This document shows, piece by piece, positions 1,736 through 62,268 of a stretch of DNA of 64,000 bases. This DNA comes from Mortierella sp. BCC40632 (lineage: Eukaryota; Mortierellomycota; Mortierellomycetes; Mortierellales; Mortierellaceae). Position numbers and translations under genes: made by a program. Below the pieces are notes generated by a model that saw only the letters and a list, made by a program, of their open reading frames with translations, was not told the DNA's origin and made no database searches. The stretch is taken from positions 1,761,001 to 1,825,000 of the forward strand of contig WAEK01000003.1 in assembly GCA_011634665.1 (NCBI GenBank), in the 5' to 3' direction. Every line of letters starts with the position of its first letter. Within the stretch, counting starts at the first letter, position 1.

Positions 1736-2985
1736 CTAGTCAAACAAACTAAACTCGGGAATAAGATTCACAGGCAACAAGGGTGGTGGATGATGTGATC
1801 CAGGTCCCGATCCAATTCCCGTAGCAACAACAGCAGAAGCAGCAGAGGCAGCCGCAGTAGTCAGGTAATGCGCCGGGTAGGCCGTCGGGATCGATCCCAT
1901 AGAACTAAACATGTGTGTAAGAGAAATAGATCCAGGGGGTGTCCTTGGACGATTCATATGAATCGGTTGTGGTTGAACCACCGTCAAAGAATCCTCAGAG
2001 GACAATGATGCCTCTCCAGAGGATGGTACCGTCGTCGCCACTGCGTTGGAGGAAGAAGAGGCACCATTGACCGTAGTAGTGGATCCAGAGACAACTGACA
2101 TAATTCCATTGGACCCAGTGATCGTTGTCATGGTTGAAATCGTTGTAGACCCACGCACGAGTTTGGCCCGCTCACGTTCTAGAATGGTTTGGTGGTTGAT
2201 AAAAGGTGGTGATCGCAGTGCTTTACATGCACCACAGTTCTTGACACATTGCCAACACCGTTCCTGGGGTGCATTGCAGAACCGACACCGCTCTTGAGAC
2301 CAGACAATATTGGTACAAGGGGGTGATGCGGATGTGGAAGGTGGATTCGAGGCAGAGGTAGGTGGTGGAGTAATGGGTAGAGGAGTGGAACCAGGTGGAG
2401 GTGCCCAATGGAGACCACCCCCATAGTGCTGAGCTCCGCCATTGGCTTGATTCGGAGGAGCAGTGTCCTGGGCAGATCCTGAAGAGGATACAATCGGTCC
2501 AGGGCATGGATGAATATCCAAAGTAACTCCATGAGTGTGTCCCTTTTGACTAGAAACAATGACTCCCTTGTGATCCGGGTTGTTGCGTATGGACAAATCA
2601 TCCTGAACTTCTTTTGACAAGGGTAAAGCGACTGCTGCTCCGACTATTGTGATATCATTCAAGACTTGTTTGAATCCAAGAATGTCTTCTTCTTTGGTCA
2701 TATAAGGATGAAAGATCTCCCATCGACGAAGACGAAGGCTATGAGGCAAGATATCTTCATTCCTGAGCATATCCCTGAGCATGGAGGCATCGTTGGCAAG
2801 ACTGGTTTGGTGACGACGATAACGAGAGGAGAGGAATTCTAGGTTGGGGAACTTTATCAGCATGACCAATGGAGAAGGGAATTGAGAAGAATCTGTAGAG
2901 TCCATATAAATCTAAAGAGAAAAAAGGACATGTTTTTAGGGTGTGGTTAGCTCTTCTCTTGTTTTCTTTTTCTTTTTCTTTCTGC

Positions 2986-3024
<39 letters not shown>

Positions 3025-3741
3025 CACCTCGCGTGATCTCAATTGCATTCAAACATAAAAATAAAGGCCCAACATTTACCTCGCGGACAAAATCAACCAA
3101 TCGATTCTCTTTACGGAACCGACGCAGGACAGCATAAATCTCCGAGATCAGGGACCGACTTCCTCCTCGATCTCGATCCCGTTCATTCTCTTGATGCTTC
3201 AACCGTTGATCTTTTTCTTCCTTGTCTTGATCCTTTTCCTCTTCTTCCGATTCACTCGACTCCCAATCTGATCCAGATTTGTTGCCCATCGACTTTTTCT
3301 GTGTTGGATAAAGTCTTTTTCTTGGATCCCGCTTTTTGGCAAAGACAATCTTGGAAGAATCAGATGCTGACACAGATGATCCGCTCGATTCTGCCGTTGT
3401 TGTGGTCGATCCACTGGCCAGTGCAGTAGCCGCAGCAGTAGTAGTGGTTGTGGTAGTAGTGATAGCGGTGGTGCCATCAACAGCAACAACTGGAGCTGTC
3501 AACTTGGAAGATGCAGAAAAAGAAGCTAGATTGGCGTATTCTGACAAGGGCACGAACCGGACTCTTTTCCAAGCATCTGGCAAGTTCAAGAGAAGATAAC
3601 GATGATACCGGCAAGTGTCGAGGAATCGAAAGATGGCCAAAATGTCAAGATAGCTCATCACTTGGAGAACCAATTCTGGGGGGAGTTTAGCAAAGATGGA
3701 TCTTTGATCGATCCATTGAATTGGATAAAGTGGAGGAGCTT

Positions 3742-52452: not shown

Positions 52453-55400
52453 ATGGGGAACCCGTCAGATCACACTGGTCAGGAACCGTTTGACCTTGCT
52501 CTGACCCTCGCACGCGCCGCAGCCGCATTCAGGGACGCTGATTTTTTCGAATCCGCCATCCTCTTTTGGTCCTCGGCCCTCGAAGAAGAAGCATTGACCG
52601 AGGAAGAAGCAGAGAAACTCCAAGAGTCGATCCTAGACTTTGACCTCGAACAGGAATTGGGTCTGGACGTTCAAATCGATGAACCGATCGAACTCGTCTT
52701 TCCTCAACCATCCTTGTCGGATCAGCGGACGGTTTCTCTGGCTCAACGACATTGCTTGATCGCTCTCTGTTACCTGGCTCGACATATCAATGTCCGGATA
52801 GACGTCCTGCCCACCGGAAACGATACCCTCACGACCCTTGGCTCTCCTCAACGGGTCTATGGCTCCCTTACACAAGAACAAAAACAACGGTATCATGTCT
52901 TGCTCGCCATTGTTTTCTCTTCCTCTTCCAAGGCCTCGTCCGTCGATTTTACACCATCGTCCTCCACCCCCTCGACAAAGGCCCAGGAAGCCAACGAACG
53001 ACTCTTGTTACAACAGACAACACTTCGAGGGAATGAATCGACCGTGACCTGGCAAACCACACTTCCTCAGAAACGAACTCCTCATAACTTGCCTCGTAAC
53101 TTTTCATTCTTGAACCCAAGCGCTTGTACGGTAGCAGGATGTTCAATCCCAAGGAATGATTTGGATATTGATGCGTTGGAACAGGTGGGCTTTCGGTTGG
53201 TGATCACGATGATCAAGGAATCCCCTCTTTCTCAGTCCTGGTTCCAACAGCAGCAACAGCACCGTGGATCTGCTCCCAAGACCTCGACGGTCTCCCCGAC
53301 ACTGACCCAACACAAAAAGATCAAGAATGCATTTGTTCCGATCGAGAATCGAAAGGCTCCTCTGTTCCCTGAAGTCTTTGAGGTGTTGATGGGCTGGTGT
53401 GTGCGTGCAGGTGAACCCTTGGATGAGACAGAGAAGGAACAAGGGTCAAGACCTTTTGATCACGAGAGAGCGACATTGGTCCATTGTGGTGGAGGTAAAG
53501 GTCGAGCTGGGATTGTGCTTGCAGCTCATTTGATCCGATTTGGACCTCTTGGGACTCAACAGCATGGATATTGCTTGGAGTGTCTTTTGGATGAGAATGT
53601 TCATGCGATGGATTTGGATCAATTCCGTCGAGGACTAGGAGAACAGGCCTCGACCGTCGCCACTTTGCCCAAATATTGTCAGAGTCGAGACCGTGACCAG
53701 GAGGAGGAAGAGGAGGAGGAAGAGGAGGAGGAGAGTGAAGAAGAAGGAAATGAGTACACTGGATTGATCCGTCGAGTCCGGAACAGTCAATGCTTGAATC
53801 GATTCAAGCCCATGATGACTGCCAAGGAAGCCATGGCCCATCTACGGGCCCTGCGACCAGGAAGCATTGAAACGGTGGAACAAGAAAAGGCGGTTCGTGC
53901 CTATGGAGATTGGCTCTGGAAACGCTCGATGGTCAAGTCAACTCGACGAGCTACCAAGCCAACACTTTCGAAGGAAGAGTCTTTATTGACCCAGACGGCT
54001 CACGACGAGGGCTCGACTAGAGAAGGTCAAGAGTCTTTGGGTAATCTCTCCTCGAAGGACAAAAAAGACAAAAAGAAGGACCCTGTTTCGAAAGCACGAG
54101 CCCCCAAGACTGTGACCCCGACTCCTCCTGTCGAACCTGTGCAAGAAGATCTGTCAGAAGAGGATCAGGACCGAGCCCGGCGATCAGGAGGTAAAAAAGG
54201 CAAGAAAGGATCCAAACAAATGACGACCGAGGATTGTAAACCATTTGTACCGCCTCCAGCACACAAGATTATCAAACTTCCAGGCAGTGGCAAGGGATCG
54301 CATCATCAACACCATTTGATTGTCCAACACAATCTCCGAGCACGACAACTTCAAAGAGGTGAAAAATCGAAAAAGAAAAAAGGAGGTGGAGGTGGAGGCA
54401 ACAAGAATTTCAAGGATCGACCTTCTTTCCAGATCACGGGTACGGCCTTGACCTCACCACCACGGTTGATTGTGTTGACAGGATTACCAGGCAGTGGCAA
54501 GACCCATGTGGTGAATACGCTCTTGAGAGATTTCCCAGAACATTTTGTTAGTATCTCTCAAGATGAATTAGGATCTCGCTCAGTTTGTGAACGGTTATTG
54601 GCTCAGAATATGAGGCATCAGCAACAAGCCCTTGCAGCAAGAGGTCCCTTGAAAGCCTTACCGATGACTGTGTTTGTGGATCGATGTAATCCCACGAGGG
54701 CCGAACGTCGTGGATGGTATGAGGATGCTTTCCAACCGGATGAGACGGCCATGGTTTGGTTTACCTTGACTTCAGAGGCCTGTGTGGAACGAGTGGATGC
54801 CAGAGTGGATCATCCCACGGTCGCCCCAGGACGAGGACAAACTGTGGTGAATAGCTTTGTGAAATCATTCGAGGTCCCTCATCTGGGTAAGGAATCCTGG
54901 TGCAAGACCTTGATTGAAGTTGGAGATGACGAAGGTAGTGACCGATTGATTGAATTGTTGGGTGAGATGGCACGAGGGGTGGGAACTCCAATGTCGGAAC
55001 GGAAAATCTTGGATCAACAAGCTCAGCCTGCCAAGATCAGACCAGCTTTTATCCCTGCAAGTGTCTTGCAAAGGAAACGAGTCGGTGTTGGAAGTGGTGC
55101 AGAAGGATCAGGACCGAGATCGCCTACAAAGGGAAGCATGGACAGTGTGATCGAAGAAGACAGTGAAAAGGAAGAAGAAGAGGAGGAGGAGGGTCCCTCT
55201 GCTGGAAAGGAAGAGGAGGAGGAGGAGGAGGAGAATGGTGGAGAAGAGAATGATGAGGACGAGGAAGCGGATGAGGAGAACGAGGATAACAAAAAAGACA
55301 ATGAAGAAGAGGAGGATAGATCTCGTCCTGAAAAGGAACAACGGATTTCCACTGCCATTACAGGAGCGCTCCGATTTGCGACTCCTATTGGCCATCGACC

Positions 55401-56742
55401 AGCGGTCAAGAAGCCTGCGCGAGGAAGTTGGAAACAACCTGGTTCCGGTTCGTCAGACACTCGGGAGAATTCATCGACGGCGCCTTTGAGTCCCAAGGGA
55501 GTTTCGTTTGCGACCAACATGGTGTCGTACGATCGACCTCTTCAAAAGTATCCTAGAACACCTCATCTTTTCGATCCGCTCACCATTCGTCAGAGTCGAC
55601 CTTTGATTAGTTCTCGAACCAAGGAAACAGCGGACCAGGCCCAGGAGCGTCACTTGGAGGACGAGGAAGAAGGAGAAGAAGAAGCAACTTCTGATGACTT
55701 ATCGACTCCAAAACAAAGTGCAGCCATCAGTCGGAATGACTTACTCTTGCCTGACTCTGCATTGGATCAAATTCTGACCCCAAAAGCTCATCAGGTATTG
55801 ACAGTCGAAGAAAAGTTGGATGGAGCCAACATTGGGTTCAGTGTATTGCATTTCCGAGGGATGAATGGATTTGGAGGACAAGGAGGTCCTCCACCAAGAC
55901 TTCGAGTTCAAAACAGAAATCATTTTGTTCACCCGGATGATCATTGGCAGTTCAAGAAATTGGGACAGTGGATGGAAACGCATCGAGAAGATCTCTTGTG
56001 GCTCTGTGAAGGTCAATGGCGGTTTGAGAAGGATCAACAAGAAGAGGATCAGGAGGAGGAAGAGGATCGAGACAAAGAGGAAGAGCTTTCAAAGAAGACA
56101 GATCCTGCCGAGGACAAGGACGAGAACCAAGAGCCTGAAGAGAAACAAAAAGACAACGACAATTTTGATGATGCCGATGATGGAGATGGTGACGACGATG
56201 ACGAAGAAGAAGAAGAAGAAGAGTACATGGACGAGACCATGGTTCTGCAGGATGGAATGGCACCCTATGTCCTCTATGGTGAATGGATGTACGCTAAACA
56301 TTCAGTCGAGTATACGGGTCTTCAATCCTGGTTTGTTCCGTTTGATCTGTTTGATGTCAAGACGGGTACCTTTGTCTCACGAACCATCTTCCGAAACGCG
56401 ATTGCACGGACACGACTGGTCACGAACCCATCGTTGGAGATCCCTGTGGAGGTGAGAGGGGATGTGGATAGGATGGTAGAATGGGTATTGACCCAGCTAC
56501 AGAGTCGATCCAGGTGTATGCGAGAAGATGATAAAAAGGAGGATGAGGAGAAGGAGCGGGTCGAAGGGTTGTACTTTCGAGTGGATCAAGGAGACCGACT
56601 CTTGCACCGGGCCAAGGTGGTCCGATCAGATTTCATTGCAGGGGAAGAACGATGGGGGATGAAGGAGCAACGCGCGAACCAACTGCGGCATGATGCACAC
56701 TATGCAGGAATGTATGATGATGAAGAGGAGGAGGAAGAGTAG
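52453..56742 (+). CDS. Trimodular RNA-repair protein: cysteine phosphatase, PNK-like kinase, RNA ligase
   Basis: A single intronless frame of 1429 residues. Residues about 215-400 form a DUSP23-like cysteine phosphatase: NFSFLNPSACTVAGCSIPRN, then the P-loop HCGGGKGRAG with Cys345 and Arg351 (C-x5-R). Residues about 670-860 form a PNKP-like kinase: Walker A GLPGSGKT at 677-684, the SQDELGSR phosphoacceptor-side motif with Asp704, and VDRCNPTRAERRGWY. Residues about 1100-1429 form an Rnl2/RNA_ligase-type nucleotidyltransferase: motif I EKLDG with Lys1121, VQNRNHF, motif III YGEW with Glu1277, motif IV VEGLYF with Glu1371, and a motif V Lys at 1388. Acidic and basic low-complexity linkers separate the modules. 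The inferred job is healing 5' and/or 3' RNA ends and sealing them with ATP. Which end the phosphatase treats, and whether the substrate is tRNA, is unknown. The N-terminal ~210 residues are not recognised. Confidence 0.88.
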   Translation: MGNPSDHTGQEPFDLALTLARAAAAFRDADFFESAILFWSSALEEEALTEEEAEKLQESILDFDLEQELGLDVQIDEPIELVFPQPSLSDQRTVSLAQRHCLIALCYLARHINVRIDVLPTGNDTLTTLGSPQRVYGSLTQEQKQRYHVLLAIVFSSSSKASSVDFTPSSSTPSTKAQEANERLLLQQTTLRGNESTVTWQTTLPQKRTPHNLPRNFSFLNPSACTVAGCSIPRNDLDIDALEQVGFRLVITMIKESPLSQSWFQQQQQHRGSAPKTSTVSPTLTQHKKIKNAFVPIENRKAPLFPEVFEVLMGWCVRAGEPLDETEKEQGSRPFDHERATLVHCGGGKGRAGIVLAAHLIRFGPLGTQQHGYCLECLLDENVHAMDLDQFRRGLGEQASTVATLPKYCQSRDRDQEEEEEEEEEEESEEEGNEYTGLIRRVRNSQCLNRFKPMMTAKEAMAHLRALRPGSIETVEQEKAVRAYGDWLWKRSMVKSTRRATKPTLSKEESLLTQTAHDEGSTREGQESLGNLSSKDKKDKKKDPVSKARAPKTVTPTPPVEPVQEDLSEEDQDRARRSGGKKGKKGSKQMTTEDCKPFVPPPAHKIIKLPGSGKGSHHQHHLIVQHNLRARQLQRGEKSKKKKGGGGGGNKNFKDRPSFQITGTALTSPPRLIVLTGLPGSGKTHVVNTLLRDFPEHFVSISQDELGSRSVCERLLAQNMRHQQQALAARGPLKALPMTVFVDRCNPTRAERRGWYEDAFQPDETAMVWFTLTSEACVERVDARVDHPTVAPGRGQTVVNSFVKSFEVPHLGKESWCKTLIEVGDDEGSDRLIELLGEMARGVGTPMSERKILDQQAQPAKIRPAFIPASVLQRKRVGVGSGAEGSGPRSPTKGSMDSVIEEDSEKEEEEEEEGPSAGKEEEEEEEENGGEENDEDEEADEENEDNKKDNEEEEDRSRPEKEQRISTAITGALRFATPIGHRPAVKKPARGSWKQPGSGSSDTRENSSTAPLSPKGVSFATNMVSYDRPLQKYPRTPHLFDPLTIRQSRPLISSRTKETADQAQERHLEDEEEGEEEATSDDLSTPKQSAAISRNDLLLPDSALDQILTPKAHQVLTVEEKLDGANIGFSVLHFRGMNGFGGQGGPPPRLRVQNRNHFVHPDDHWQFKKLGQWMETHREDLLWLCEGQWRFEKDQQEEDQEEEEDRDKEEELSKKTDPAEDKDENQEPEEKQKDNDNFDDADDGDGDDDDEEEEEEEYMDETMVLQDGMAPYVLYGEWMYAKHSVEYTGLQSWFVPFDLFDVKTGTFVSRTIFRNAIARTRLVTNPSLEIPVEVRGDVDRMVEWVLTQLQSRSRCMREDDKKEDEEKERVEGLYFRVDQGDRLLHRAKVVRSDFIAGEERWGMKEQRANQLRHDAHYAGMYDDEEEEEE

Positions 56743-58344: not shown

Positions 58345-60055
58345 ATGTTGAACAACGGTGCCGTTTTTGCAGCAACAGGAGCCATTGTATCGTTGGCGAC
58401 TGTTGCTTTAGCATCCACTCGACCAGGGATGATTCGGTAAGAGAAAAGAAGACATTCCAATCGAACCGTTGTCCGATTTTTTTTTCTTCTTCTCATAAAG
58501 AGTAGTCCCAGTTCTAAGGCGACTCCTTTTCTGGCGTTATTATCGTATTCTTGGGAACTTGGGGGTGGGGGGGGGGGTATGTCTTCATTAGATTGGACCT
58601 TGTTACCAAGTCAAACCATTACGATGCAGAACCAAACAATCAGAACACTCATGACCATCAGCGGCGGTCATTCTCAGGACAATATCCATTTAAAGAACCC
58701 GGCACGAGTACTCGATCCCGACTCTATGATCATGCTCAGTTCGAAGGACTACCTCGCCAAGGACAGGAAAAAAAACTAGAGTAGAGAGTTGGAGCTGTAA
58801 GACAGTGATGAGCAGGGTCCAAAAGTGTTCGCTCACTCGAACATTGCTCCTTCATTGTTTCTTTCCAAAGTTCATGATTGATATCTGGCTAGGCACCCCT
58901 TCTCAGGAGTTTTCAGTTGAATTGTCGACAGGGACATCTACTCTTTGGGTACCATCCTCCAAATGCCGCCAGTCCTCGTCCTCCTCATCCCGACGGAACG
59001 CTCAAGAAGGACAACGACAACAGCGACAACAACAACAACAACAACAACGTCATCCAGGATTCGACTCTGAACGCTCACGCACATTTTCCACCAACGGAAA
59101 AACAGCTCGATTTAGTCTTGGTGGGACAGGCGAACATGGGGATGGAGCATTGGCCACACTCGAGGCATTGATCGGACGGGATCAATTACAGTTTGGAGAC
59201 ATGGAAAACGGTTGGTTGGTTCAGATTCCTGAACAATCCTTTGGACAAGTCCTTTCATGGGAGGAGAAACAAAAAGAACCTCAAGAAGGACCCTATCCTC
59301 GCTCGACTCTATCCTGTTCGAGGTCAAAGAGATTGAACCCTTACAAAGAAAAAAAAGATGAAGAATGCCCAGCCAATTTAGCAGCGGATGGAATCTTGGG
59401 GTTGGGATTTGATCTTCAATCTCCTACAGGTCAACCATTCTTGCATCGACTTTGGGATCAAGGGATTGTAGACCAACCCATCTTTGGACTCTATCTCGGT
59501 CAAAGAGGTGTTCCCTCGTCTAGTGAAATCACGATCGGTGGATTGGATCCACTCCATTACAAAGGTCAACGCCTTCAATGGCATGACCTAACTCGAGCCC
59601 CTCAAGGTCAATGGGCCATCGAATTGACCGCGTTTGCTTTGGGTCGAGAAGCCTACCAGGTGGAAGATGGGCATGTCTTGATTGATTTGGCATTCCCGGG
59701 AATTGCTCTCGCTCCTGAGGAGGCCAAAGCCCTGAATGCTCAATTGTTAGGTTCGGTCGAGACCGCACCTGGATCGGGTCTCTACCAAGTACCCTGTGAC
59801 CTGGAACCGACCCAACCAAGCTATGATCTGATCCTTCTCCTGAGTGAGACAGATTACCAACTGGGTCGCCAAGAGTATATTATAAAGGCAAAGACGGCCA
59901 CAGGGACAGAGGTCTGCTATAGTGCGATTGTGGGCATGTCGTTTACGGACATGACAGGAGGGATCTCGGCCATCCTGGGTCGAGTGTTTTTGGAAAAGTA
60001 TTTTAGTGCTTACGATCGTGCCAACCTTCGCATTGGCTTTGCTTTGGCTGCGTGA
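58345..60055 (+). CDS. Secreted pepsin-like (A1) protease homologue, probably inactive
   Basis: Exon 1 (58345-58436) encodes a signal peptide, MLNNGAVFAATGAIVSLATV, ending near a small-residue site. Exon 2 (from 58592, phase-matched) encodes a charged propeptide that meets an in-frame TAG at 58782-58784. Exon 3 (58871-60055) encodes the A1 fold: IWLGTPSQEFSVELSTGTST, LWVPSSKC, ADGILGLGFD, DQPIFGLYLG, and SAILGRVFLEKYFSAYD near the end. I found no GT donor that joins exon 2 to exon 3 in frame, so the gene may be broken or use an unplaced exon. In the first active-site motif the Asp of DTG(S/T) is replaced by Ser (TCG at 58925-58927). The second keeps Asp (59684-59686) but in DLAFPG instead of DTGT. 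With one catalytic Asp gone, proteolysis is unlikely. It could be a secreted pseudo-protease or a decaying gene. Confidence 0.72.
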
Positions 60056-60195: not shown

Positions 60196-62268
60196 CTAGT
60201 TACCATGGCGATCCGAGCTAATGCTCGTACGTTGATAACTCTTGCGACGCGCTGTAGTATACTCAATTCCAGAGGCATTTGCCGCTCCACTCTCAGGAAC
60301 TGTATCGCTCAGGAACTGATCCTGAGTCACCATAGGTGGAGGAGAGGGAGTGGCCGAGCTCTGCATTTTGTCCGATGCCTTTTCATCCTCGAGCATGGTG
60401 TCTTCACCCTGACCATGCTCTGCCTTCTCCATTGGATCCTGTCGACCTGTAATCTTCCGGATCAACCGGACCAACCACGGTGGCAAAACACCCTCACCCT
60501 GAGGTCCCATCCTGAACGACATGCCTGGGTCCTTCTCATCCTTGTTGGGAGGAACCCATCGTCCTCGTGACAATTTTTCGATAATATAGACCGTGCCGTT
60601 GATGACCACAGCAGCCAAGAGACCTCCCAAGAGACCATAGGCAATGTTGTAGGTGAGAGGCATCATGGTCAAGGTCAAGAAGGCTGGGATGGCGTCGCCA
60701 ATGTAGTTAAAGTTGATCTCGGTCACCGACTTGGTCATCAACGAACCCACAAAGATCAGAGCAGGTCCCGTAGCCCAGGGTGGGATGGCCGAAAAGATGG
60801 GCGAGAAAAAGAGCGAGACAAAGAAGCAGAAACCAGTGGTCACGGCAGTCAAACCCGTTCGACCTCCCTCCGTGATACCGGCACCCGATTCGACAAAGGC
60901 CGTGACATCGGATGTACCAAAGACAGCGCCAAGAGAGACACAGAGTGCGTCCGTGATAAAAGCTGGGGTCGAGCCCTCAAAATCACCTGTCTTGGGATCC
61001 ATAAAGCCTGCAAACTGGGCCATCGAGAACATGGTACCGGTCGTGTCCAGAATGTCGACATACAAAAAGGTGATCAAGGTCAACCAAAACTCGCCCGTGT
61101 TCAACTGGAAATCCATGACGGCCAGCGTCTTTTGGATGGTGTGAAAGCTGACGACTTGTTTGAAATAATCGAAGCGAGCATTGCCGATTGCGTCGTAGGG
61201 GAAATAGGTGACAGGCGTACCACGGAACCAGGAGACGATGGCGACAAAGAGAATACCGATCAGGATACCACCCTTGACCTTGAACAGAAGCAAAATCGAG
61301 ATCAGGAACAAGCCCAGAACACCCATCCAGGTTGTGGGTGATTCCATCCGATGAGAGGTACAAACGCCCGAGGCGTCGAGATATTCGGGTGCACAGGCGC
61401 CCAAGCTAACCAAAGTTGCGGGGTCAGCGCGAATGAGACCGATACCAGCTGAGGACTGCATGCCGATGAAACAGAGATAGAGTCCAATACCGACGCCTGT
61501 TGCGACCTTGATGTTCCTGGGGATGCATCGAGCGAGCCATTGACGGAGTCCCAAGATCGAGAGGACCAAGAATACGAGACCTTCGATAAAGACGGCGGCG
61601 AGTGCTGTCTGGTAGCTGATCTTGCCGCTTCCAAACTTGCCAACAACAGTGTAGGTGAAGTAAGCGTTGATGCCCATTCTATAGGAGAGGAAAGGGGATG
61701 AGAAGGGGAAAGAAAAAGAAAAAGAGTCGTGTAAGGAACAACGACAGTCATTCAAGTCCTGTAGGAACTATCGATCGATCGAAAGTTTTTTTTTTGCTTA
61801 CCCTGGAGCCATGCCCAAAGGCAGGTTCGAAAAGATACCGATGGCGGTCGAGGCAATGGCGGCCATAGCAGCCGTGGCAACGATCAAATCCTTTCTGATG
61901 ACATCAACACAGGTCATGTACTCGTGGTTGCTAGCACAGTAGGCAATCCGGCCCATGCCACTCGCAGGAGGAGGGCCACCACCAGCTGCAATGCCGATCA
62001 TGCCCTGTGGGGAAGCAGCAGCACCTCCCTTGGCAGGATCCAGAGGGTCAAAGTCACAAACGCAGGTTCCGCCCGTGTCCGAGATGATGAGTGAGTTGAC
62101 CGAGATGATGTAGGCCATAGTGACAAAGGTGGCAAATCCAGCGCGGAGCTCTGTTGAGAACTTTGTGTTGGCACGCGCGCGAGGGTGGGACGAACCCTCG
62201 AGCATGAACCACCGGCCGATGGGAGAGCGGGCCACGGCCGTGTTGAGTCTGGAGACTAGTCCAGTCAT
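60196..62268 (-). CDS. AzgA-like purine (hypoxanthine/adenine/guanine) permease
   Basis: Two exons, 62268-61802 and 61678-60196, join across a 123-nt intron (CCAGG|gtaagc ... ctatag|A) in frame to 649 residues. N-terminal VARSPIGRWFMLEGSSHP, then TELRAGFATFVTMAYIISVN and SDTGGTCVCDF, are typical of fungal AzgA. The core holds about 12-14 hydrophobic segments, with NLPLGMAPGMGINAYFTYTV at the junction and ITEGGRTGLTAVTTG in the substrate region. The hydrophilic C-terminus is Pro/Ser-rich and cytosolic by expectation. AzgA proteins are plasma-membrane proton symporters for adenine, guanine and hypoxanthine; specificity here is inferred from the family. The start is the ATG before TGLVSRLNTA; the frame is open further upstream but only as CT-rich leader. 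It is convergent with the protease gene, 140 bp apart. Confidence 0.93.

What the first reader, a model, noticed from the sequence alone, without database searches (positions are those of the whole stretch)
52453..56742. One intronless gene encodes phosphatase, kinase and RNA ligase modules
The sequence shows C-x5-R phosphatase (Cys345), Walker A (677-684) plus PNKP-like DELGSR and NPTRAERRGW, and RNA ligase motifs I, III, IV and V in a single 1429-residue frame. By family knowledge these would cover end healing and sealing of broken RNA in one chain. The usual fungal tRNA ligase has a different set and order (ligase, kinase, cyclic phosphodiesterase). A DUSP23-type cysteine phosphatase as the third module is unusual. 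Other multi-domain fungal RNA-repair proteins with HAD-type phosphatases have been named (Swiss army knife), so the novelty lies in this combination, not in the idea of a fusion.
Basis: partly seen in the sequence, partly recalled or inferred. Interest (0 to 1): 0.88.

Follow-up and report, generated by a model that had tools for sequence, protein, structure and literature searches.

The report
Fungal all-in-one RNA repair protein
This Mortierella-type fungus has one large protein that looks able to clean up and rejoin broken RNA; it belongs to an already named family found in many fungi, but its lineage lacks one of the usual four enzyme parts.

Summary
ORF 52453-56742 (+) encodes 1429 residues with a cysteine phosphatase (HC345-x5-R), a PNKP-like kinase and an Rnl2-type RNA ligase. 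Active-site residues are conserved in 36 of 36 Mortierella-type proteins, except one row with a gap from the end of ligase motif IV through V.

The claimed novelty is not. Pfam already names this phosphatase "PTP-SAK, Swiss Army Knife". All 121 proteins examined (window plus 120 listed relatives) carry all three modules, 119 in this order; they come from chytrids, Dikarya, rotifers, algae. Most non-Mortierella relatives add an N-terminal 2H cyclic phosphodiesterase.

What is distinct: (1) the Mortierella-type proteins lack 2H; the genome's only 2H-SAK match is a small, apparently secreted protein of another clade. (2) The phosphatase general-acid Asp of DUSP23 aligns to Asn in 120 of 121 proteins, making the assumed 3'-phosphatase role uncertain. 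(3) The phosphatase carries a four-cysteine insert, shorter in a chytrid-containing clade. Trl1- and Tpt1-type genes are also present, so this is an additional RNA-joining enzyme.

Best reading: RNA end-healing and sealing; what the phosphatase removes is the weakest step. New variant of a known kind, moderate interest.

The parts
52453..56742 (+). ORF, 1429 aa, 2H-less Swiss-Army-Knife-type RNA repair protein
52453..53067 (+). residues 1-205: helical N-terminal region of Mortierella-type proteins; no 2H domain found, no significant match to the TPR region of other SAK proteins
   Evidence: AlphaFold helices (low confidence); hhalign and hmmsearch negative; 34 of 205 columns invariant in 36 rows
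53086..53928 (+). residues 212-492: PTP-SAK cysteine phosphatase, interrupted by an insert
   Evidence: Pfam PF22784; own HMM, stretches 212-425 and 450-498; DUSP23 fold
53482..53505 (+). HCGGGKGR (344-351), nucleophile Cys345 and Arg351
   Evidence: 36 of 36 identical
53347..53349 (+). Asn299 (VPIENRKAP) at the position of the DUSP23 general-acid Asp
   Evidence: alignment of the relative P0061 to 4erc, 2img and 25xa; Asn in 36 of 36 and in 120 of 121
53566..53799 (+). residues 372-449: insert after the P-loop helix with C374, C377, C409, C447 (possible zinc site) and an acidic run
   Evidence: four Cys columns invariant in 36 of 36
54460..54963 (+). residues 670-837: P-loop 5'-kinase (Walker A 677-684, QDELGS 703-708, DRCNPT 743-748)
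55138..55347 (+). residues 896-965: acidic low-complexity linker
55720..56694 (+). residues 1090-1414: RNA ligase nucleotidyltransferase domain (motif I EEKLDG 1119-1124)
   Evidence: Pfam PF09414; own HMM; motif conservation
56005..56271 (+). residues 1185-1273: acidic insert inside the ligase domain
   Evidence: 0 of 66 columns invariant in 1191-1256
56278..56304 (+). ligase motif III GEWMYAKHS (1276-1284)
56560..56625 (+). ligase motifs IV (VEGLYFR 1370-1376) and V (HRAKVVR 1385-1391)
   Evidence: one of 36 rows has a gap from R1376 through motif V

Best explanation
A Mortierella-type, 2H-less relative of the Swiss Army Knife (SAK) proteins: an intracellular RNA end-healing and sealing enzyme in one chain. 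The kinase puts a phosphate on a 5'-OH RNA end (inferred from PNK/PNKP-type sequence and fold). The ligase, of the Rnl2/NgrRnl kind, adenylates Lys1121 and joins 5'-phosphate to 3'-OH (inferred from motifs and fold). The cysteine phosphatase prepares the other end, most likely by removing a 3'- or 2'-phosphate left by a ribonuclease (inferred; the weakest step). Shown here: gene, modules, conserved active-site residues, and no detectable 2H cyclic phosphodiesterase in this lineage's proteins. Without 2H, cyclic-phosphate ends must be opened by another enzyme (Trl1's CPD domain is the obvious candidate) or are not the substrate.
Against: The residue aligned to the general-acid Asp of DUSP23 is Asn in 120 of 121 family members, which would make hydrolysis of ribose phosphate monoesters hard unless another acid serves. 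No activity has been measured. No paper on a Mortierella SAK appeared in the listings of searches (searches listed 20 of 38 and 20 of 139), and the review recalled as the founding one was not held.
Confidence: 0.62

Rival explanations
1. The phosphatase module is an RNA 5'-triphosphatase/diphosphatase (DUSP11/PIR1-like) rather than a 3'/2'-phosphatase. The protein would then trim 5'-triphosphate RNAs to 5'-monophosphate and seal them, as well as rescuing 5'-OH ends through the kinase.
For: Asn replaces the general-acid Asp in 120 of 121 proteins; phosphoanhydride leaving groups need no strong general acid (chemical reasoning; that metazoan capping-type triphosphatases manage without it is recalled, not checked: searches did not find the papers). 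The Mortierella-type proteins show no cyclic-phosphate module.
Against: The nearest fold is DUSP23/VHZ, and no capping-type triphosphatase was among the rows shown. Most other relatives carry a 2H domain (77 of 85 by the Pfam column, counted by eye), which fits nuclease-made ends. Another residue could serve as acid.
Confidence: 0.2
2. The phosphatase acts on proteins or small molecules, or only holds phosphorylated RNA ends (an Asp-to-Asn phosphatase resembles a substrate trap), and regulates the kinase-ligase pair.
For: Asn at the acid position; the PDB records of DUSP23 call it a dual specificity protein phosphatase.
Against: Cys and Arg of the P-loop are invariant in 36 of 36, and fusion to kinase and ligase is kept in 121 of 121, as expected for an RNA-end enzyme.
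Confidence: 0.13
3. The fungus's main tRNA/HAC1 splicing ligase has been replaced by this protein.
For: It carries kinase and ligase modules in one chain.
Against: The genome also has a Trl1-type gene (CPD match E 1.2e-25, with kinase and ligase motifs read by eye in the same and the adjoining frame) and a Tpt1 match.
Confidence: 0.03

Closest known systems
Swiss Army Knife (SAK) proteins: 2H-SAK (PF22547) - TPR - PTP-SAK (PF22784) - AAA_33 kinase - RNA_ligase (PF09414)
   Same: All three catalytic modules, same order (119 of 121), HCGGGKGR loop also in 82 of 85 others (read), same Asn at the acid position
   Different: No 2H domain; different N-terminus; four-Cys insert with long spacing in the phosphatase; acidic inserts and linkers; 1294-1548 aa in the 35 orthologues, against 79 of 85 others at 1000 aa or less
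Fungal tRNA ligase Trl1 (ligase-kinase-CPD) plus Tpt1
   Same: Kinase and ligase in one chain; RNA joining logic
   Different: Different order and third module; Trl1- and Tpt1-type genes exist separately in this genome
T4 Pnkp + Rnl1/Rnl2, mammalian PNKP
   Same: PNK-type kinase, Rnl2-type ligase fold, healing-plus-sealing logic (PMC3400036 passages)
   Different: Their phosphatase is Asp-based (DxDxT; for T4), here a cysteine phosphatase; separate proteins in T4
DUSP23/VHZ
   Different: Single domain; Asp at the position where SAK has Asn
Giant-virus proteins A0A3G4ZM97 (Terrestrivirus) and A0A2H4UUE0 (Bodo saltans virus)
   Same: Foldseek match along most of the canonical SAK model (E 1.8e-60 over 909 columns; 3.0e-36 over 755)
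   Different: TM-scores over the whole are low (0.26 and 0.17-0.21), so domain placement differs or is flexible; sequences not examined

Membership tests
SAK (Swiss Army Knife) family | PTP-SAK phosphatase domain with active-site Cx5R | tested here: met
   PF22784 4.6e-25, 88.9 bits, cut-off 27; HCGGGKGR 36 of 36
SAK (Swiss Army Knife) family | PNK-type P-loop kinase (AAA_33) | tested here: met
   38.1 bits, cut-off 27; motif residues invariant apart from T684 (Ser in 34 of 36) and one E705D
SAK (Swiss Army Knife) family | RNA ligase domain PF09414 with motifs I, III, IIIa, IV, V | tested here: met
   77.9 bits, cut-off 27
SAK (Swiss Army Knife) family | order PTP-kinase-ligase in one chain | tested here: met
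   119 of 121
SAK (Swiss Army Knife) family | N-terminal 2H-SAK phosphodiesterase (four-domain form) | tested here: not met
   0 of 36 Mortierella-type proteins; 8 of 85 other relatives also lack it in the Pfam column. So it is filed as a 2H-less variant, not as the four-domain form
SAK (Swiss Army Knife) family | TPR region between 2H and PTP | tested here: inconclusive
   TPR in the canonical profile; the window N-terminus is helical in a weak model but has no profile match
Trl1 tRNA ligase | Trl1-type ligase, kinase and CPD domains in that order | tested here: not met
   No tRNA_lig_CPD match in the ORF; the Trl1-type gene lies on another contig
T4/PNKP-type polynucleotide kinase-phosphatase | HAD (DxDxT) 3'-phosphatase | tested here: not met
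   The phosphatase is Cys-based; no HAD family among the 19 families; the NCBIfam PNK-3'Pase model matched only the kinase part, 15.8 bits against a cut-off of 502.8
SAK (Swiss Army Knife) family | measured healing and sealing activity | not testable with these tools
   needs biochemistry

The most novel reading that the evidence does not exclude
The SAK phosphatase has discarded the usual general acid and works on 5'-triphosphate (or diphosphate) RNA, or traps phosphorylated RNA ends. SAK proteins would then join primary transcripts or viral and small RNAs as well as nuclease-cut RNA, and the 2H-less Mortierella form would be the lineage committed to that role.
Probability: 0.17. Interest if true: 0.68.

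Novelty: new variant of a known kind. Interest (0 to 1): 0.4.

Why it matters
It corrects the claim of a new domain combination and places the gene in a widespread RNA-repair family on which few papers turned up here. It gives two sharp, testable points about that family: a phosphatase without the expected general acid, and a fungal lineage whose proteins do without the cyclic phosphodiesterase. If the phosphatase works on 5'-triphosphate RNA, eukaryotes would have a single-chain route for joining primary transcripts.

Tried and rejected
Novel fusion: rejected; the window protein and all 120 listed relatives (of 138 found) carry the same three modules (weakest E 3.4e-11).

Fission of the 2H domain into its own gene: considered because the genome's only 2H-SAK match at E <= 1 is a separate gene. 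Rejected as a recent event: that gene, read with one inferred intron, begins with a hydrophobic signal-like stretch, and in a tree of 86 rows the 67 fused 2H domains lie on one side of a branch and the stand-alone proteins on the other (SH-aLRT 99; quick method, 127 columns, no bootstrap, with warnings of long branches). That tree used 18 of the 54 stand-alone hits plus the window genome's own, and 67 of the 69 fused proteins that pass a two-motif pattern (two incomplete pieces dropped; 16 of 85 did not pass). The hydrophobic score is crude: over 2.0 in 46 of 54 stand-alone proteins but also in 14 of 85 fused ones; no signal-peptide predictor was at hand.

Hidden degenerate 2H in the N-terminus: hhalign (probability 0.3%) and hmmsearch with filters off gave nothing. 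N-terminus as the SAK TPR region: hhalign 0.4%, undecided because AlphaFold was weak there. An earlier hhalign matched only at the edge of the phosphatase.

Counts of 2H among the 85 others differ by method: 77 by the Pfam column (counted by eye) and 69 by a two-motif pattern. The 14 changes of state on the tree may include truncated gene models. A loose C..C test there counted 16 of 85 as having the insert; the stricter one gives 10 of 85. One orthologue, P0031, departs in 42 of 43 columns of residues 450-492, so no column there is invariant; probably a faulty gene model.

Other genome matches: the PTP-SAK model also rings at two other places over its cut-off (31.8 and 31.5 bits) and four below it, and the kinase part at one (30% identity, E 3.6e-5, with a stop). 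They were not followed up.

Bacterial operon ancestor with all modules: of the 80 bacterial loci kept of 202, 10 had a kinase match near the ligase, 2 of them strong (L089, L094), and none had the phosphatase or 2H within the fetched flanks. The 24 viral-contig loci had the ligase alone.

A search for free-standing kinases gave 7 hits: 4 partial Mortierellaceae models and 3 unnamed. Phage records: 3 weak ligase hits. NCBIfam added nothing over a cut-off.
Full report
What is there. The + strand ORF 52453..56742 encodes 1429 residues in a stop-to-stop frame of 1437 codons. The window lies in a 49.9 Mb assembly of a Mortierella-type fungus: of the 35 closest relatives 31 are named, all under genera of Mortierellaceae, and 4 are unnamed. 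The stand-alone 2H protein of the same genome is 91% identical over 86% of its length to one of Lunasporangiospora selenospora.

Pfam finds PTP-SAK, AAA_33 and RNA_ligase, each over its curated cut-off. Across the window protein and 35 orthologues, the loop HCGGGKGR is identical in 36 of 36. So are G677, G682, K683, Q703, D704, L706, G707, S708, DRCNPT, R780, R784, E1119, E1120, K1121, D1123, G1124, G1276-E1277-W1278, Y1280-A1281-K1282-H1283, D1298, D1301 and E1371-G1372. One row has a gap from R1376 through ligase motif V, and single rows vary at E705, S1284, Y1374 and F1375. Conservation falls in the acidic stretches: 43 of 101 columns invariant in the first ligase half, against 0 of 66 in the acidic insert.

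It is a known family. The search found 138 relatives and listed 120. HMMs built from the non-Mortierella members found phosphatase, kinase and ligase in all 121 proteins, in the order phosphatase-kinase-ligase in 119; P0093 and P0109 differ (weakest match E 3.4e-11). By record names the relatives come from chytrids, Basidiomycota, Ascomycota, bdelloid rotifers and green algae, with one fern record that may be contamination. Pfam calls the phosphatase 'Swiss Army Knife protein, DSP-PTPase phosphatase domain' and the usual N-terminal domain 'Swiss Army Knife, 2H phosphoesterase domain'. A profile of canonical proteins also shows TPR between 2H and phosphatase. The review by Burroughs and Aravind (2016), where I recall such systems being surveyed, is not held; I saw only a sentence quoted from it in PMC11258130 (passages). 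No paper on a Mortierella or Mucorales SAK protein appeared in the listings of searches; two searches listed 20 of 38 and 20 of 139 papers.

What differs here, first: the 2H domain. It is absent from the 36 Mortierella-type proteins by Pfam and by an HMM of fused 2H domains with filters off, and no open frame of 30 codons or more in the window matches better than E 0.61. Of the 85 other relatives, 77 carry it in the Pfam column (69 by a motif pattern). The genome's single 2H-SAK match (3.6e-20) is a separate gene at G000:C12. Read with one inferred intron it encodes a chain that starts with a hydrophobic stretch and has two HIT motifs. Of 54 relatives found, 47 are named, all under Mortierellaceae genera, and 7 are unnamed, among them the four most distant. 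The stand-alone and fused forms separate on the tree (SH-aLRT 99). So it is probably a secreted enzyme of its own and not the lost domain set free. If exported it would also be kept away from this protein; that is inference from hydrophobicity, not from a signal-peptide predictor.

Second: the general acid. In alignments of the relative P0061 to VHZ and 25xa, the Asp of RIPDFCPP and PLPDFSAP falls on the Asn of LPVENYQPP. The matching residue is Asn in 120 of 121 proteins (101 by pattern, 19 read by eye from the printed segments) and Asp only in P0088. In the window it is Asn299 (VPIENRKAP), Asn in 36 of 36. That this Asp is the general acid of VHZ is recalled. Cysteine phosphatases that lack it act poorly on monoesters with bad leaving groups (established chemistry), so the 3'/2'-phosphatase role is not safe.

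Third: the insert. After the P-loop helix, Mortierella-type proteins have C374-x2-C377 ... C409 ... C447 (all four invariant in 36 of 36). 10 of 85 others, nine of them in one clade of ten rows that includes named chytrids, have a short CxxC...C...C there. A zinc site is likely but unproven.

How it most likely works. Many nucleases leave 5'-OH and cyclic or 2'/3'-phosphate ends; 2H enzymes open the cyclic phosphate to a 2'-phosphate (PMC9503650, passages), and phage, fungal and plant systems heal both ends before ligation (PMC3400036, passages). An Rnl2-type ligase seals 5'-phosphate to 3'-OH (established for T4 Rnl2, recalled). A chain with kinase, phosphatase and Rnl2-type ligase therefore fits healing plus sealing. 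In the canonical form the 2H module would open cyclic ends and the phosphatase finish the job; in the Mortierella form that first step must come from elsewhere. The genome has a separate Trl1-type gene (CPD match 1.2e-25, with P-loop and ligase motifs read by eye in the same and the adjoining frame) and a Tpt1 match (2.9e-28), so ordinary tRNA splicing need not depend on this protein. Genes annotated as RNA ligases rise in rotifers after fungal attack or radiation (PMC11258130, PMC10809525, passages); whether those are SAK genes was not checked.

Verdict. Observation confirmed, novelty claim not. What deserves follow-up is the substrate of the phosphatase and the lineage-wide lack of the 2H module.

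Noticed in passing
G000:C12:1403512-1403952 (L015 about 2693-3513, one inferred intron): Stand-alone 2H-SAK phosphodiesterase with a signal-like N-terminus; 47 of 54 relatives found are named Mortierellaceae, 7 unnamed.
   Followed up: partly
window:53347-53349 and the 121 SAK proteins compared: General-acid Asp of DUSP23-type phosphatases aligns to Asn in 120 of 121.
   Followed up: partly
window:53566-53799: Four-cysteine insert in the phosphatase, in shorter form in 10 of 85 other relatives, nine of them in a clade with named chytrids.
   Followed up: partly
BFVD A0A3G4ZM97 and A0A2H4UUE0: Giant-virus proteins that match the canonical SAK model along most of its length.
   Followed up: no
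L089 2896-4953 and L094 1630-3717: Planctomycete loci with a SAK-like kinase frame just upstream of a SAK-like RNA ligase frame.
   Followed up: no
window:44358-47246, 58805-60055, 60196-61677: Neighbours are an SNF2/CHD-type helicase part, an aspartyl protease and a Xan_ur permease; three other ORFs of the six scanned had no Pfam match at 1e-5, and no RNA-repair gene was among the six.
   Followed up: partly
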